Positions 57,535-62,875 of a stretch of DNA of 64,000 bases are shown here, piece by piece (position 1 is the stretch's first letter; the number at the start of each line of letters is the position of its first letter). The notes under the pieces are model-generated. The model saw nothing but the letters and a program-made list of their open reading frames with translations, did not search any database and was not told where the DNA came from. The position numbers were made by a program, and so were the translations under genes. Source of the DNA: Solirubrobacterales bacterium (GTDB lineage: Bacteria; Actinomycetota; Thermoleophilia; Solirubrobacterales; 70-9); assembly GCA_021323175.1 (NCBI GenBank), contig JAJTCK010000001.1, positions 1 through 64,000 on the forward strand, written 5' to 3'.

Positions 57535-58854
57535 CTAGCCCGAGAGCGCTCGCAGATCCCCGGCGAAGCCCGGGTAGCTGACCGCGACCGCGTCGAAGCC
57601 GGTGACCTCGACCCCCTCGCGCGAGGCCAGGCCCGCGATCGCTCCCAGCATCGCCATCCGGTGGTCGCCGCGCGCGTCGAGCGTTCCCCCGCGCAGGCCG
57701 CCCGTTCCCCTGACGGCGAAACCGTCGGGACGGCCCTCGATGTCGGCTCCCACGGCTGAGAGCCCGTCCACGACGGCATCGATCCGGTCCGACTCCTTGC
57801 GCCGCAGCTCATCGGCTCCCGTGACGACCGTCTCGCCCTCGGCGAAGCATCCGAGCAGCGCCACCAGGGGCAGCTCGTCGATCGCCCCGGGCACGTCCTG
57901 CGGGCCCACCTCGGCGCCGGAGAGTGCCGCCGGTCGCGCTCGGAGCGACGCCATCGGCTCGGGGCCGGGCTCCCGGATCTCGTGCACGACCATGTCGCGC
58001 CCGGACTCGTGGGCACCGCCCATCGTGACCCCCATCCGGGAGAGGATGCTCAGCAGGCCGATCCGGTTGCGGTTGATGCCGACCTCTCTGACTTCCACCT
58101 CGCTGCCGGGGACGATCAGGGCGCCGCAGATGAAGAATGCCGCGGAGGAGAAGTCCCCCGGGACCACCACGTCCCCCGACTCCAGCGCTTCCGCGGGAGC
58201 GACGATTACCGCGTTCCCCTCGCGGCGGATTGAGGCCCCTGCCGCTGCGAGCATCCGCTCGGTGTGGTCCCTGGAGGGAACGGGTGAGCTGATCCGGGTC
58301 TCGCCCTGCGCCAGCAGGCCCGCCAGCAACAGGCAGGACTTGACCTGGGCGCTCGCGATCGGAAGCTCGTAGTCGATCCCCCGCAGCTTCGAGCCGCGAA
58401 CGGTCAACGGAGGGAGTCGCCCGTCACGGCAGTCCACGTCGGCGCCCATCCGCCCGAGCGGCTCGGCCACGCGGTCAACCGGCCGGCTTCTGATCGAATC
58501 GTCGCCGTCCAGGGTCCACCCGCCGCCCGGCTGGCCCGCGAGCCAGCCGGGCAGGACACGCAGCAGGGTTCCCGCGTTGCCGACGTCTATCCGCGCGGGC
58601 CGCGCGCCCCGCAGCCCCACGCCCTCGACCTCGACGAACAGGCCGCCGTGCTCATCGGCCTCCCCCTCCCGGACGGCCGCGCCGACCGCCTCCACCGCTG
58701 CCAGCGTGGAGCGGGTGTCGGCGGAGTCCAGGAACCCCGTGACGCGCGTCGGCCCGTCGCACATGGCGCCGATCAACGCGGCCCGGTGCGAGATCGACTT
58801 GTCCGGCGGTGGGCGGAGGGACCCCTCCAGCGCCCCGGCGGGATCGAACCTCAC
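57535..58854 (-). CDS. aroA: 3-phosphoshikimate 1-carboxyvinyltransferase (EPSP synthase)
   Basis: 439 residues. Motifs PDKSISHRAALIGAM, DVGNAGTLLRVLPGWLAG, RSRPVDRVAEPL, VPGDFSSAAFF, LRRKESDRIDAV and GDHRMAM. Joins shikimate-3-P and PEP. The GNAGT loop has LLR rather than the class-I TMR. Starts 4 bases inside tyrA (ATGA). Third gene of aroF-tyrA-aroA. Confidence 0.97.
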   Translation of the reverse strand: MRFDPAGALEGSLRPPPDKSISHRAALIGAMCDGPTRVTGFLDSADTRSTLAAVEAVGAAVREGEADEHGGLFVEVEGVGLRGARPARIDVGNAGTLLRVLPGWLAGQPGGGWTLDGDDSIRSRPVDRVAEPLGRMGADVDCRDGRLPPLTVRGSKLRGIDYELPIASAQVKSCLLLAGLLAQGETRISSPVPSRDHTERMLAAAGASIRREGNAVIVAPAEALESGDVVVPGDFSSAAFFICGALIVPGSEVEVREVGINRNRIGLLSILSRMGVTMGGAHESGRDMVVHEIREPGPEPMASLRARPAALSGAEVGPQDVPGAIDELPLVALLGCFAEGETVVTGADELRRKESDRIDAVVDGLSAVGADIEGRPDGFAVRGTGGLRGGTLDARGDHRMAMLGAIAGLASREGVEVTGFDAVAVSYPGFAGDLRALSG

Positions 58855-59933
58855 CGCTCCACCGGTACGACGTCGTGGCCGAGAGCCCCGATCAGCTCCG
58901 CGGCGCGCCTGGCATCGTCATCTCCCGTGACGAACAGCGAGATCGCGCCGGAGCTCATGTCGGCCGACGGATGCAGCGCCATGTCCTCGATGTTGACGCC
59001 GCCGTCGCCCAGGGCCAGCGCGATCTGCGCGACTACGCCCGGGGTGTTGGAGACGAGGACGCGAAGCTCGCGCAGACGCCCAGCCGCGCGGTCCTCCGCC
59101 AGCAGGCCGCGTCGGTGCTCAGCTGCCCCCGCGTGCCACGCCGCGATCGAGTCCTGGTCGCCGCTCCGCAGCAACTCCGCCGCATCGGAGAGCCTGGCGG
59201 CGGCAGCCTCGACCTGGTCGGCCACCGCCTCGCGGTTGCCGCCGAGGATGTCCCCCCAGATCGCCGGGTTGGCGCCGGCGACGCGCGTGGCGTCGCGAAA
59301 GCTGGGCCCGACCTCGGGGAATCGCTCGGAGTAATCCCCGGCCAGGGCCTCGGCGGCCTGGGCGACCAGGACGTTGGCCAGCACGTGCGGGAGGTGGCTG
59401 ACCGTCGCCATCAGGCGGTCGTGGGCCTGGGCGTCGATCGCCTGGGGCCGCGCGCCCATGCCGGCGATGGCGCGCTGGACCCGGTCGTAGAGCAGGCCGC
59501 CAGTGGTGGGCGTCGGGGTGAGGTACCAGCGGGCGCCGTCGAACAGGTCCGCGCGGGCGTTCTCGACACCCGCCGTCTCGGCCCCCGCGAGCGGATGGCC
59601 GCCGACGAAGCGGGGGTCCCCGCCCAGGGCGGCGATCGCGTCGCGCTTGACAGAGCCGACGTCGGTGACCGCTGTGTCCCTCCCGGCCGCCGCCAGGGCA
59701 TCGCGGGCCACGTCCGGCAACACGCCGACCGGCGCCGCGCAGAAGACGATCTCGGCGCCCGCGACGGCGTCGGCGATCGAATCGTGGGTGGACCCGACGG
59801 CGCTCAGCTCCTCAGCGCGAGCGAGCAGCTCGGCGTCCGGGTCGTACCCGGCCACCTCCGCAGCCAGGCGGTCTCGCGCCGCCAGCCCGATCGAGCCCCC
59901 GATCAGGCCGACGCCGAGGACCGCGATGCGCAT
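58851..59933 (-). CDS. tyrA: Prephenate dehydrogenase with ACT domain
   Basis: 360 residues. NAD-binding GVGLIGGSIGLAARD; catalytic region GGHPLAGAETAGVENARADLF and the His in VSHLPHVLANVL. A C-terminal ACT domain (about 283-355, RVLVSNTPGVVAQIALALGDGGVNIEDM) suggests feedback by Tyr. Second gene of the aromatic operon, 36 bp after aroF. Confidence 0.96.
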   Translation of the reverse strand: MRIAVLGVGLIGGSIGLAARDRLAAEVAGYDPDAELLARAEELSAVGSTHDSIADAVAGAEIVFCAAPVGVLPDVARDALAAAGRDTAVTDVGSVKRDAIAALGGDPRFVGGHPLAGAETAGVENARADLFDGARWYLTPTPTTGGLLYDRVQRAIAGMGARPQAIDAQAHDRLMATVSHLPHVLANVLVAQAAEALAGDYSERFPEVGPSFRDATRVAGANPAIWGDILGGNREAVADQVEAAAARLSDAAELLRSGDQDSIAAWHAGAAEHRRGLLAEDRAAGRLRELRVLVSNTPGVVAQIALALGDGGVNIEDMALHPSADMSSGAISLFVTGDDDARRAAELIGALGHDVVPVER

Positions 59934-59969: not shown

Positions 59970-61067
59970 TCATCGGTCTGCCCCGCGGCGCGCGCGCGAC
60001 GCCGCCGCCAGCCGGTCGAGGGCCAGCACCGTGGTCTCCCAGTCCATGCAGGCGTCCGTGATCGACTGGCCGTAAACCATCTCGGCGCCCGGCTCGAACT
60101 CCTGGCGCCCGCCGACGATGAAGGACTCGAGCATCACCCCCACGATGGCTCGGTTGCCGCCGGCGACCTGGCCGGCGATGTCCGAGAGCACCGTCGGCTG
60201 GACCTGGTGGTCCTTGCCGCTGTTCTCGTGGGACGCGTCGACGATCACCCGCTCGGGCAGGCCCGCCGCCCGCAGCTCCCGCAGCGCGGACTCGACCCCT
60301 TCGGCGTCGTAGTTGGGCGCCCCGCGGCCCCCCCGCAGAATCACATGGCAGTCGTCGTTGCCCTGGGTGTGCAGGATGGCCGGGGTGCCGCTTACGTCCA
60401 CGCCCGCAAACGCGTGCTGCGCCGCCGCGGCGCGGACCGCATCCACGGCGATCTTGACCGTGCCGTCCGTGGCGTTCTTGAATCCCACCGGCATCGAGAG
60501 TCCCGAGGCGAGCTGGCGGTGGATCTGGCTCTCGGTCGTCCGCGCGCCGATCGCCCCCCAGGCGACCAGGTCGGAGATGTACTGCGGCGTGATCGGATCC
60601 AGGAACTCGCAGCCGATCGGGAGCCCTACGTCCAGCACCTCCCTCAGCAGCCCGCGCGCGAGCAGCAGGCCGTTGTTCACGTCGCCGCTGCCGTCCAGAT
60701 GGGGGTCGTTGATCAGGCCCTTCCAGCCGATCGTGGTCCGCGGCTTCTCGAAGTACACCCGCATCGCGATCAGCAGGTCATCGCTGAGCTCCTCGGCGCG
60801 GGCGCCCAGGCGCTGGGCGTAGTCCAGGGCGGCATCGACGTCGTGGACGCTGCACGGCCCGACCACGACGAGCAGGCGGTCGTCCTCGCGGTCCAGGACC
60901 CTTGCGACCGACTCCCTGTGGGCGAGGACAGCGTCCTCCTCGTCGCTGCTCAGCGGCACCTCCTCGAGGATCTGGGACGGAGAGATCAGTTCGACGATGC
61001 GCGCGATCCGCTTGTCCCGGACCCTTCCCGACTGCCCTGTTGGTAGCTCCTTCATCTCCATGATCAT
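59970..61067 (-). CDS. aroF: 3-deoxy-7-phosphoheptulonate (DAHP) synthase, class I
   Basis: 365 residues, class I of the AroFGH type. Motifs LLVVVGPCSVHD, VYFEKPRTTIGWKGLINDP, ARTTESQIHRQLASGLSMPVGFKN, HENSGKDHQ. It commits PEP and erythrose-4-P to the shikimate pathway. AAGGGG stands 5 bases before ATG 61067 (further in-frame ATGs at 61061 and 61055). Immediately upstream is the FYWY leader peptide and the helix described separately, so expression probably follows charged Phe, Tyr and Trp tRNA. Confidence 0.97.
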   Translation of the reverse strand: MIMEMKELPTGQSGRVRDKRIARIVELISPSQILEEVPLSSDEEDAVLAHRESVARVLDREDDRLLVVVGPCSVHDVDAALDYAQRLGARAEELSDDLLIAMRVYFEKPRTTIGWKGLINDPHLDGSGDVNNGLLLARGLLREVLDVGLPIGCEFLDPITPQYISDLVAWGAIGARTTESQIHRQLASGLSMPVGFKNATDGTVKIAVDAVRAAAAQHAFAGVDVSGTPAILHTQGNDDCHVILRGGRGAPNYDAEGVESALRELRAAGLPERVIVDASHENSGKDHQVQPTVLSDIAGQVAGGNRAIVGVMLESFIVGGRQEFEPGAEMVYGQSITDACMDWETTVLALDRLAAASRARRGADR

Positions 61068-61078
61068 TCTGTCCCCTT

Positions 61079-61208
61079 TTCTACTGGTACGGCGATCGTC
61101 CTTGCCCGGTTGCGGCGCCCGGCGAAGCGGATTCGCGGTCAGCGGGCCCGGGATCGAGAGGCGGGCCCGCGGGCCGGACGCCTAGCTAAATCGCGGATAC
61201 CAGTAGAA
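61079..61208 (-). promoter_or_regulatory. aroF attenuator: leader-codon helix next to the Shine-Dalgarno
   Basis: On the minus strand TTCTACTGGTA (61208-61198; the Phe-Tyr-Trp-Tyr codons) is exactly complementary to TACCAGTAGAA (61089-61079), 108 bases on. Inside it GCGAT pairs with ATCGC, and CGTCC with GGACG, giving one stacked closing stem around GC-rich inner hairpins (GGCCCGCGGGCC; GCGAA/TTCGC). The 3' strand ends two bases before the aroF GGGG. No U-run terminator follows. A ribosome stalled on FYWY would break the helix. Confidence 0.75.
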
Positions 61209-61283
61209 GCTGCGCGCACGCGAGCGAGCCGCCTTGCGGCCCGTGTCCGAGGTGCTGGGATCGAGGGGAGTCGCGTGACGCAT
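61182..61283 (-). CDS. Aromatic leader peptide of aroF
   Basis: A 33-residue frame from ATG 61283 (or GTG 61289, two codons earlier) to TAG 61184-61182. Preceded by AGGAAGAAG. The first 25 residues are hydrophilic and Arg/Ser-rich; the last eight before the final Ser are FYWYPRF, holding five aromatic residues in seven. It is the only run of this composition in the window, and it lies directly upstream of DAHP synthase. Expected role: to sense supply of Phe, Tyr and Trp by ribosome stalling. The peptide itself is probably unstable. Too short for ordinary gene finders. Confidence 0.8.
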   Translation of the reverse strand: MRHATPLDPSTSDTGRKAARSRARSFYWYPRFS

Positions 61284-61344
61284 CCACACAGAGACTACTT
61301 CTTCCTGCGCTTCGGATGCGACCTTCTCGTTCACGCCGACGCTC

Positions 61345-62436
61345 TCAGATCGCGTCGGCCATCGCCGTCAGGAACCGTTGGTTCTCGTCGCGGTTGCCGT
61401 AGGTGACGCGCAGGTTTCCCTCCGCCCCGAGCGCCGCGCCGGGCCGCACCGCGACACCGGCGCGCGCGAGCGCTTCCACGAGCTCGGACTCGTCGCGGTC
61501 CCCCAGGCCGACCCACACGAAATTCGCCTGGGAATCGGCGATCTCGAGACCGAGCTCGCCGAGACCCTCCTCGACGAACATCCGCTCGACGATGTTCTTC
61601 TCGACCCGGTTGGCCACGTCGTCCTGGTGCAGGAGCGCCTCGGCCGCCGCCGTCTGAGCGAGCAAGTTGACGCTGAAGGGCTGACGCACCGCGTCCACAG
61701 CCGCCCGGAACTGCGCGGAGCAGAGCGCGTAGCCCACGCGCAGGCCGGCCAGGCCGTACACCTTGCTGAAGGTCCGGAGCAGGACCAGGTTCGGGTGGTC
61801 CGGCAGCAGGTCGATGGTCGCATCGGGGTGGTCAACCGCCTGGTACTCGATGTAGGCCTCGTCCAAGATCACCGTCACGTGCTCGGGAACGCTCTCTACG
61901 AAGGCCGCGATCCGCTCTGCGGGCAGGTAGGTCCCGGTCGGGTTGTTCGGGTTGCAGACGACGACGATCTGCGTCGCCGCTGTGACCTCCTCGTGCATCG
62001 CGTCGAGGTCGTGTACCCAGCCGTCGGCCAGCGGCACGCGGATCTCGCGCGCCCCCGAAAGCGCCGCCATGTGCGGGTACATCGAGAACGAGGGCCACGC
62101 GTAGACGATCTCCGCATCGGGCTCGCACAGCGCCTCGGCGGCGGCGAGCAGGATCTCGCAGGATCCGTTCGAGACCGCGATTCGACCCGGCTCGGTCTCG
62201 CAGCGCTCGGCGATGCGGGATCTCAGCACGCGCGCCTCGGGGTCCGGATAGCGGTTGATGTCCCCCGCGGCGGCGGCGATCGCCTCGATCACCTGTGGGT
62301 GGGGCGGCAAGGGCGACTCGTTCGAGGCGAGCTTGACTGCGTCGGAGGTCTGCGCCCGCGCTTTCGCATCGTCGAGCGAGATACCCGGCTCGTAGTGCGG
62401 GATCCGCGCGAGCTTCTCGGCGAAGGTGACGGTCAT
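61345..62436 (-). CDS. HisC-type aminotransferase (histidinol-phosphate or aromatic)
   Basis: 363 residues from ATG 62436. Fold type I PLP enzyme: LASNESPLPPHPQV opening, VVCNPNNPTGTY, DEAYIEYQ, PLP-Lys in RTFSKVYGLAGLRVGYAL, and Arg in GNLRVTYG. It lies between chorismate mutase and DAHP synthase with no his genes near, so aromatic transamination (phenylpyruvate or prephenate) is more likely than histidine synthesis. The leader peptide follows 61 bp downstream. Confidence 0.88.
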   Translation of the reverse strand: MTVTFAEKLARIPHYEPGISLDDAKARAQTSDAVKLASNESPLPPHPQVIEAIAAAAGDINRYPDPEARVLRSRIAERCETEPGRIAVSNGSCEILLAAAEALCEPDAEIVYAWPSFSMYPHMAALSGAREIRVPLADGWVHDLDAMHEEVTAATQIVVVCNPNNPTGTYLPAERIAAFVESVPEHVTVILDEAYIEYQAVDHPDATIDLLPDHPNLVLLRTFSKVYGLAGLRVGYALCSAQFRAAVDAVRQPFSVNLLAQTAAAEALLHQDDVANRVEKNIVERMFVEEGLGELGLEIADSQANFVWVGLGDRDESELVEALARAGVAVRPGAALGAEGNLRVTYGNRDENQRFLTAMADAI

Positions 62437-62497
62437 GGTCGCGACATTGTGACGGGCCGACGCAGGCATGGCCGGGGGAAGCTCCCGACCGGCCTGC

Positions 62498-62875
62498 CTA
62501 CTGGGCGGCGTCCAGGTCCGAGCGCAGCTTCTGAGCCTCGCCTATGTATGTGTGGACCGGCGTGTGGTCGGTGGCGCCGTAGTAGTGGACAAGGACGCGG
62601 ACCACCCCGCGCATCGAGCCGGGAACGTCGATCTCCTGGCCGCAGAGCAGCGGCACCTTGTCCAGGCCGAGGTTGCGCGCGGCAACCGCCGGGAACTCCG
62701 CGTTCAGGTCGTGGGTACTGGTGAAGATGCAGCTGACGATTCGCTCGGCTTCGAGATCGTTGCGGGACAGCAGCTCGCGCATCAGCTCCTCGGTGCCTGA
62801 CACGACCAGGTTCGCGTCGTTGCGACCGATGCTCGTCGCTCCGCGGACTGCCCACAGTCTCTGGTCCTGGCTCAT
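62498..62875 (-). CDS. aroH: Chorismate mutase, AroH class
   Basis: 125 residues of the small trimeric alpha/beta-barrel class (B. subtilis AroH type). WAVRGATSIGRNDAN, IFTSTHDLNAEFPAVAARNLG, and RVLVHYYGATDHTPVHTYIGEAQKLR, with the active-site Arg near residue 11 and Arg/Tyr near 93 and 98. Converts chorismate to prephenate for Tyr and Phe. It overlaps the rluB stop by 4 bases. Confidence 0.95.
   Translation of the reverse strand: MSQDQRLWAVRGATSIGRNDANLVVSGTEELMRELLSRNDLEAERIVSCIFTSTHDLNAEFPAVAARNLGLDKVPLLCGQEIDVPGSMRGVVRVLVHYYGATDHTPVHTYIGEAQKLRSDLDAAQ

What the first reader, a model, noticed from the sequence alone, without database searches (positions are those of the whole stretch)
61068..61289. 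FYWY leader peptide and matching helix upstream of DAHP synthase: a likely three-amino-acid attenuator
Seen: a 33-codon frame ends in SFYWYPRFS just before aroF. The codons TTC TAC TGG TA form the 5' strand of an 11-bp perfect helix whose 3' strand stands two bases from the aroF GGGG. GCGAT/ATCGC and CGTCC/GGACG extend the same stem. Known: leader-peptide attenuation is classical for trp, pheA and his, and from memory a Phe-type leader acts on aroF in Corynebacterium. Inference: one leader reads Phe, Tyr and Trp together, and the ribosome's position on the codons decides whether the helix can form. The absence of a U-tract hairpin suggests translational control, but I cannot exclude Rho or RNase action. 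A possible second partner for the SD is TCCCCT at 61269-61264 (pairs with AGGGGA).
Basis: partly seen in the sequence, partly recalled or inferred. Interest (0 to 1): 0.92.

Follow-up and report, generated by a model that had tools for sequence, protein, structure and literature searches.

The report
Aromatic-sensing leader before DAHP synthase
A tiny upstream gene rich in phenylalanine, tyrosine and tryptophan codons sits before the first enzyme of aromatic amino acid synthesis in this bacterium and most of its order, and probably lets ribosomes stalled by a shortage of these amino acids switch the enzyme on; devices of this kind are known, but this order-wide version appears undescribed.

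Summary
On the minus strand, a 33-codon ORF (61283-61182) ends SFYWYPRFS and precedes aroF (61067-59970). The 11-bp helix is exact.

Relatives strengthen the leader reading. A nearly invariant element, UGG-CGA-UUU-ANN-UAG-GCG, occurs about once per genome in 142 of 201 genomes of the order. It lies upstream of DAHP synthases of three architectures. In 140 leaders, F/Y/W codons crowd the five codons before CGA in that frame only. 138 of 139 leaders contain Trp, Tyr and Phe.

Its register drifts between lineages, but native pairs beat swapped pairs (p = 0.0009) and controls are null.

Most likely it is a leader-peptide attenuator acting on translation initiation. Rho-dependent or other transcriptional control is not excluded, and no expression data exist. 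It works like the Corynebacterium aroR leader and the actinobacterial LEU element, but lacks aroR's terminator. Verdict: new variant of a known kind.

The parts
61292..61297 (-). Candidate -10 element TAGTCT, 8 nt before the leader ATG: predicted leaderless start of the leader mRNA
   Evidence: Position. In relatives TTG - 17 nt - TGNTACAA(A/C) lies typically 8-11 nt before an in-frame start (80 of 140 vs 6 and 4 in the other frames). The window's own version is divergent, so this part is inferred.
61182..61283 (-). Leader ORF, 33 codons, MRHATPLDPSTSDTGRKAARSRARSFYWYPRFS*
   Evidence: In 140 relatives: no stop in 20 codons and F/Y/W enrichment only in this frame
61197..61208 (-). Regulatory codons TTC TAC TGG TAT (Phe Tyr Trp Tyr)
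   Evidence: Codons -1 to -5 before CGA are aromatic in 94, 42, 52, 56 and 36% of relatives
61179..61193 (-). Near-invariant element CGATTTAGCTAGGCG (CGA UUU ANN, stop UAG, then GCG)
   Evidence: Exact pattern in 142 of 201 genomes of the order, none for the reversed control. A codon-independent peptide search gave the same bases in all hits
61173..61182 (-). P1 hairpin, 5' arm GGCGTCCGGC, starting at the last base of the stop codon
   Evidence: 98.7% paired, 5 pairs with double changes, 0 of 500 shuffles
61114..61123 (-). P1 hairpin, 3' arm GCCGGGCGCC
61198..61208 (-). P0 stem, 5' strand (aromatic codons) TTCTACTGGTA
61079..61089 (-). P0 stem, 3' strand TACCAGTAGAA, directly upstream of the aroF SD
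61190..61194 (-). P0 inner extension, 5' strand GCGAT
   Evidence: Pairs with 61096-61092 in the MFE; GGCGA/UCGCC and GGCG/CGCC at the same place in L008 and L002 (read by eye)
61092..61096 (-). P0 inner extension, 3' strand ATCGC
61073..61078 (-). aroF Shine-Dalgarno AAGGGG; may also pair with TCCCCT 61269-61264 (in the MFE; L002 and L008 lack the GGGG)
59970..61067 (-). aroF, DAHP synthase (class I, AroF/alpha type)
   Evidence: Pfam PF00793, E = 1.9e-86
58851..59933 (-). tyrA, prephenate dehydrogenase, next in the same direction
   Evidence: Pfam PF02153/PF20463

Best explanation
This is a cis-acting, ribosome-sensed leader that matches DAHP synthase production to the supply of charged tRNA-Phe, tRNA-Tyr and tRNA-Trp. 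Proposed steps: (1) A mostly leaderless transcript starts at or near the leader start codon (inferred from promoter spacing in relatives). (2) The ribosome translates the short ORF and meets the cluster of F/Y/W codons just before the fixed CGA-UUU-ANN-stop (shown in sequence; translation itself is inferred). (3) With aromatic amino acids plentiful, the ribosome finishes and leaves. The aromatic-codon strand then pairs with the strand directly upstream of the SD (stem P0, closed over hairpin P1) and lowers aroF initiation (pairing supported statistically; effect inferred). (4) With any one of the three scarce, the ribosome parks on the codons. The 5' strand of P0 is covered, P1 stays folded and the SD region is freed. 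P1 forms only while the ribosome is at or before the last aromatic codon before CGA; it probably sets the ribosome's position or supports the open state (inferred).
For: Order-wide conservation upstream of DAHP synthase genes of three architectures: alpha (PF00793), beta with PF18152, and beta without it. Frame-specific aromatic enrichment. Trp, Tyr and Phe together in 138 of 139 leaders. P1 covariation. Codon:pre-SD pairing above swapped partners: p = 0.0009, 20 of 79 clusters at 5% or better, while P1-loop, middle-region and upstream-leader controls gave p = 0.91, 0.39 and 0.37. Modelled RBS unpaired probability in the window rises from 0.42 to 0.70 when the codons are covered, or from 0.59 to about 0.8 with another window definition. 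In the window P1 holds 10 pairs with the A-site at or before codon -1 and 1.2 or fewer afterwards. No U-tract terminator in the window. Promoter-to-start spacing typical of leaderless starts in relatives.
Against: P0 is clear in a minority of lineages, and the average gain in RBS accessibility over all leaders is small (0.45 to 0.48). Whether a ribosome at the stop codon also opens P0 depends on a few nucleotides of assumed footprint (disagree). The constant Phe codon UUU lies after the point where P1 is lost, and an additional Phe codon upstream is present in only 66 of 139 leaders. Many relatives carry a TANNNT box 30-40 nt before the gene start, which could be a second promoter bypassing the leader. 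P0 alone does not explain why CGAUUUA is so constant. There are no expression data.
Confidence: 0.6

Rival explanations
1. Same leader and same codon sensing, but the output is transcriptional. After the ribosome leaves, Rho (or RNA polymerase pausing plus Rho/NusG) terminates in the unprotected stretch before aroF; a stalled ribosome and P1 protect the RNA.
For: C. glutamicum aroR is described as acting on transcription of the aroF operon (PMC11802643). Kribbella, Corynebacterium, Arthrobacter and a Devosia MAG show hairpin plus T-run terminators after their leaders (seen by eye). The window lacks one, so Rho would be needed. P1 is far better conserved than the SD-occluding stem (vs 46).
Against: No conserved strand competes with P1 downstream, as an antiterminator/terminator pair would require (strand 3 with its own downstream region no better than swapped). 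Codon:pre-SD pairing points to the ribosome binding site.
Confidence: 0.25
2. The leader peptide or the WRF-stop region is an arrest element in its own right (TnaC-like): the nascent chain, slow CGA codon or stop context holds the ribosome in response to free amino acid or slow termination, not only to uncharged tRNA.
For: W-R-F is nearly invariant in residues and in bases, including minority codons (CGA 9% of Arg, UUU 9% of Phe in neighbouring genes). TGG-CGA-TTT also occurs in Kribbella and Corynebacterium leaders.
Against: The stop codon is replaced by CAG in two relatives, L131 and L294. F is replaced by T in G104 and the last residue is free (S, I, T, M, R, V), which argues against strict stop-codon arrest. 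Nocardia-type leaders lack the CGA.
Confidence: 0.1
3. A structured RNA (P1 plus the constant CGAUUUANNUA strand) is bound by a protein or small ligand, and the aromatic peptide is secondary.
For: Constant, mostly unpaired bases beside a covarying hairpin.
Against: The constant bases are in frame with a codon-biased ORF, no stop interrupts 20 codons in 140 sequences, and no Rfam family matches.
Confidence: 0.05

Closest known systems
AroR leader of the aroF operon in Corynebacterium glutamicum (Neshat et al. 2014, as reported in PMC11802643 and PMC4046766)
   Same: Aromatic-rich leader peptide directly upstream of a class I DAHP synthase; ribosome stalling at Phe/Tyr codons under Phe limitation. 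Corynebacterium leaders found here read MRMWRFYFSKAPEA with the same TGG-CGA-TTT bases.
   Different: In Corynebacterium a hairpin followed by TTTT lies after the leader and control is reported as transcriptional. In this order there is no such terminator in the window, a different hairpin starts at the stop codon, and the leader also serves beta-type DAHP synthases.
LEU element upstream of leuA in Actinobacteria (PMC1262725)
   Same: Base stem formed by the regulatory codon run and the SD region of the biosynthetic gene, no obvious terminator; the leuA leader (LeuL1) is leaderless in Streptomyces (PMC8079986).
   Different: Aromatic instead of leucine codons, a post-stop hairpin P1 instead of the described pseudoknot (no pseudoknot was tested here), and a different gene.
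Polycysteine leaderless short ORFs before cys genes in mycobacteria (Canestrari et al. 2020, cited in PMC13236596)
   Same: Short actinobacterial leaderless ORF with the cognate codons, cited as translation attenuation.
   Different: Other amino acid; primary paper not read here.
Classical trpL/pheL attenuators of enterobacteria
   Same: Regulatory codons shortly before the stop. From memory, E. coli trpL ends WWRTS-stop, with the same spacing from Trp to stop as WRFS-stop here.
   Different: No intrinsic terminator and no competing terminator strand detected.

Membership tests
Leader-peptide (ribosome-mediated) attenuator | Short ORF upstream of a biosynthetic gene with codons for the pathway's end products | tested here: met
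Leader-peptide (ribosome-mediated) attenuator | Codon bias conserved in one frame across relatives | tested here: met
   36-94% aromatic in frame at five positions vs 0-14% in other frames
Leader-peptide (ribosome-mediated) attenuator | RNA structure that depends on where the ribosome stands | tested here: inconclusive
   P1 clearly depends on position in the model; the effect on the RBS is modest and footprint-sensitive
Leader-peptide (ribosome-mediated) attenuator | Expression responds to charging of the cognate tRNA | not testable with these tools
   Needs reporter fusions or ribosome profiling
Classical transcription attenuator | Intrinsic terminator (hairpin plus U-tract) before the gene | tested here: not met
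   none in 60950-61500
Classical transcription attenuator | Strand competing for the antiterminator hairpin | tested here: not met
   strand 3 with downstream region native -15.9, swapped -16.5
C. glutamicum aroR type | Aromatic leader upstream of class I DAHP synthase | tested here: met
   PMC11802643
C. glutamicum aroR type | Terminator-based control of aroF transcription | tested here: not met
   for the window; the T-run terminator is seen in Corynebacterium L071/L073
C. glutamicum aroR type | Common descent of the leader | tested here: inconclusive
   Shared TGG-CGA-TTT, but model R1 finds nothing outside the order in the sampled class and phylum
LEU element | Base stem between codon run and SD region | tested here: met
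   In the window and in 20 of 79 clusters at the 5% level
LEU element | Leucine codon run | tested here: not met
   The codons are aromatic
LEU element | Conserved pseudoknot | not tested
   No pseudoknot search was made
Known Rfam riboswitch, T-box or leader | Match to a covariance model | tested here: not met
   no family near its gathering score

The most novel reading that the evidence does not exclude
A two-layer device. Besides ordinary stalling at Phe/Tyr/Trp codons, the nearly base-invariant UGG-CGA-UUU-ANN-UAG followed by a fixed post-stop hairpin is itself a timed ribosome-pausing or arrest element. It would give one DAHP synthase leader an integrated reading of all three aromatic amino acids, and it was kept while the enzyme behind it was exchanged between alpha and beta DAHP synthases.
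Probability: 0.2. Interest if true: 0.8.

Novelty: new variant of a known kind. Interest (0 to 1): 0.58.

Why it matters
DAHP synthase is the gate to all aromatic amino acids. In E. coli its control is split among isoenzymes and repressors (general knowledge). Here one conserved leader carries codons for all three products and stays attached to DAHP synthase although the enzyme type behind it changes, which makes integrated sensing directly testable in one RNA. It extends leader-peptide control of this step from Corynebacterium to a deep, mostly uncultured actinobacterial order, and offers a clear case of a post-stop hairpin whose stability should depend on ribosome position.

Tried and rejected
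Rfam search of the region gave only chance-level matches. Classical 3:4 terminator pairing: strand 3 of P1 does not pair better with its own downstream region than with others. Strand 1:2 (leader with P1 5' arm): no signal. Pairing within the P1 loop, or of the loop with other parts: no signal. A TANNNT box upstream of the gene start was considered as the partner of the constant CGAUUUA; its fifth base is rarely T (11%), so pairing does not explain it, and a second promoter remains possible. Using the 11-bp helix as the conserved core was dropped: it is exact only in the window, with register shifts in L002 and L008. Leader start at GTG 61334 or 61289 was considered; ATG 61283 is preferred from spacing to TAGTCT, but unproven. 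One exact match of the pattern (L158) is a chance hit without leader or DAHP synthase.

Full report
1. What is there. On the minus strand a 33-codon ORF (ATG 61283 to TAG 61184-61182) ends SFYWYPRFS and is followed 114 nt later by aroF (61067-59970; PF00793, E = 1.9e-86). Then come tyrA and aroA; upstream lie an aminotransferase and a chorismate mutase gene. The 11-bp helix TTCTACTGGTA/TACCAGTAGAA is exact and its 3' strand touches the aroF SD. Such a helix is rare between just these two windows (2 of 20,000 shuffles), but not very rare anywhere in this GC-rich stretch (9 of 300). It is present in the MFE of the leader.

2. Relatives. Searches with AroF gave 80 public loci and 70 genome matches. 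A codon-independent search for peptides ending (W/P/F/Y)-R-F upstream of aroF found ...WRF(S/I/T)-stop in some 46 relatives and, in every hit, the same bases: CGA TTT ANN TAG GCG. The pattern CGATTTANNTAGGCG occurs in 142 of 201 genomes of the order, nearly always once; the reversed control pattern gave none. The gene behind it is a DAHP synthase in 139 of 140 collected cases (the exception, L158, is a chance match). It is not always the same enzyme. Pfam shows an alpha/AroF type in the window, a beta type with the ferredoxin-like domain PF18152, and beta types without it. In several genomes the leader is attached to the beta gene and not to aroF itself.

3. It is a peptide-coding leader. In 140 distinct leaders the five codons before CGA are F, Y or W in 94, 42, 52, 56 and 36% of cases, against 0-14% in the other two frames. 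No stop interrupts the last 20 codons. Trp and Tyr occur in the last 12 codons of 138 of 139 leaders, and the constant UUU supplies Phe. CGA and UUU are minority codons in the neighbouring genes (9% each), so their constancy is a constraint on bases or on decoding, not codon habit.

4. How the leader probably starts. In relatives TTG - 17 nt - TGNTACAA(A/C) lies before an in-frame ATG/GTG, usually 8-11 nt after TACAA. This is seen in 80 of 140 leaders, against 6 and 4 in the other frames. This spacing fits leaderless mRNA, known for several actinobacterial leader peptides (PMC8079986). The window has TAGTCT 8 nt before ATG 61283, a divergent version, so its start is inferred.

5. Structure. 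The strongest structure is hairpin P1, GGCG(TC/CT)CGGC with GCCG(GA/AG)CGCC, whose first base is the last base of the stop codon. On 55 sequences 98.7% of cells pair, 5 of 10 pairs show double changes, 0 of 500 shuffles reach any measure, and slid versions collapse. The 3' register of P1 was chosen partly by complementarity, and sequences were kept only if it was found, so the paired percentage is biased upward; the double changes at two inner pairs are the safer evidence. In the window P1 is 61182-61173 with 61123-61114.

6. Aromatic codons pair with the strand just before the SD in many lineages, in shifting register: TTCTACGCCT/AGGCGTAGAG, CTACGCCTGG/CCAGGCGTAG, CTCTATTGGCG/CGCCAGTAGGG, GCTGGCGA/TCGCCAGC, CTGGTCCT/AGGACCAG. 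With 79 clusters of related leaders, native pairs outscore pairs with leaders of different codon sequence (p = 0.0009; 20 of 79 at 5% or better, about 4 expected). The P1 loop, the middle region and the upstream leader give no signal (p = 0.91, 0.39, 0.37). An earlier version of the test, without excluding similar partners, gave p = 0.0075. In L002 and L008, the nearest relatives, the 3' strand is almost unchanged while the codons differ, and pairing is kept by a shift (read by eye).

7. Ribosome positions. Covering the aromatic codons raises the modelled openness of the window's RBS from 0.42 to 0.70, or from 0.59 to about 0.8 with a different RBS window. P1 stays intact with the A-site at or before codon -1 and is lost once CGA or a later codon is in the A-site. 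A ribosome waiting at the stop gives 0.42 and 0.77, because the two footprints differ by a few bases. The model therefore separates 'stalled' from 'gone', not 'stalled' from 'at the stop'. Averaged over all leaders the RBS effect is small.

8. Spread. A covariance model of the element found it in 80 of 299 sampled genomes of the class and 12 of 397 of the phylum, once per genome, and every hit was in the window's own order. Genomes of the order without an exact match include diverged versions: WRFR-stop, CAG in place of TAG, WRFV-stop, WRTV-stop. Others have a DAHP synthase without any recognisable leader. Looser aromatic leaders precede DAHP synthase in Kribbella (SYWRFFEW), Corynebacterium (WRFYFSKAP), Nocardia (VYFWFSKP), Pseudonocardia (QYWFTRP) and Arthrobacter. 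In Kribbella, Corynebacterium and Arthrobacter a hairpin with a T-run follows, judged by eye.

9. Known systems. C. glutamicum AroR (Phe-Tyr-Phe) upstream of aroF is reported to work by stalling (PMC11802643, PMC4046766). The LEU element pairs leucine codons with the leuA SD and lacks an obvious terminator (PMC1262725). That 2005 survey of Actinobacteria reported no conserved RNA structure before phenylalanine or tyrosine operons. Literature searches found nothing on Solirubrobacterales or Thermoleophilia leaders; the library is open-access only.

10. Verdict. Leader-peptide sensing is well supported by comparison (about 0.9 by my judgement). Translation-level output is the best single guess but only moderately supported. 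Nothing about expression has been measured.

Noticed in passing
Relatives, e.g. L029, L104, L149; 30-40 nt before the DAHP synthase start: A TANNNT box is present in the 25-55 nt before the start in 84 of 136 relatives against about 21 expected, without a clear -35. It could be a second promoter inside the leader; the window lacks it.
   Followed up: partly
G042, G090, G160, G182, G007, G162, G081 vs their aroF contigs or positions: The leader sits before a beta-type DAHP synthase while the alpha aroF lies elsewhere without it: the leader stays with one DAHP synthase gene although the enzyme type differs.
   Followed up: partly
L131 and L294: The leader stop TAG is CAG, so the peptide runs on (WRFSQALG-stop in L131; WRFRQA... 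in L294) while the surrounding bases stay conserved.
   Followed up: no
L067 (Devosia sp. MAG): An alphaproteobacterial-labelled DAHP synthase locus has a leader ORF with AAYYFWYFAN followed by a hairpin and T-run: an aromatic leader possibly outside Actinomycetota, or a binning error.
   Followed up: no
L039, L043, L044, L048, L051: Nocardia and some Pseudonocardia leaders keep TTTAGC-N-AG bases but read through as sense codons (FSKP, FSEP; L048 diverges to FTRP), with a GAGCCGG/CCGGCTC-type hairpin lacking a T-run after the leader stop.
   Followed up: no
window 62498-62875 and 61345-62469: Chorismate mutase type I (PF07736) and an aminotransferase lie just upstream in the same direction, so chorismate mutase, aminotransferase, leader, aroF, tyrA and aroA form an aromatic cluster.
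   Followed up: partly
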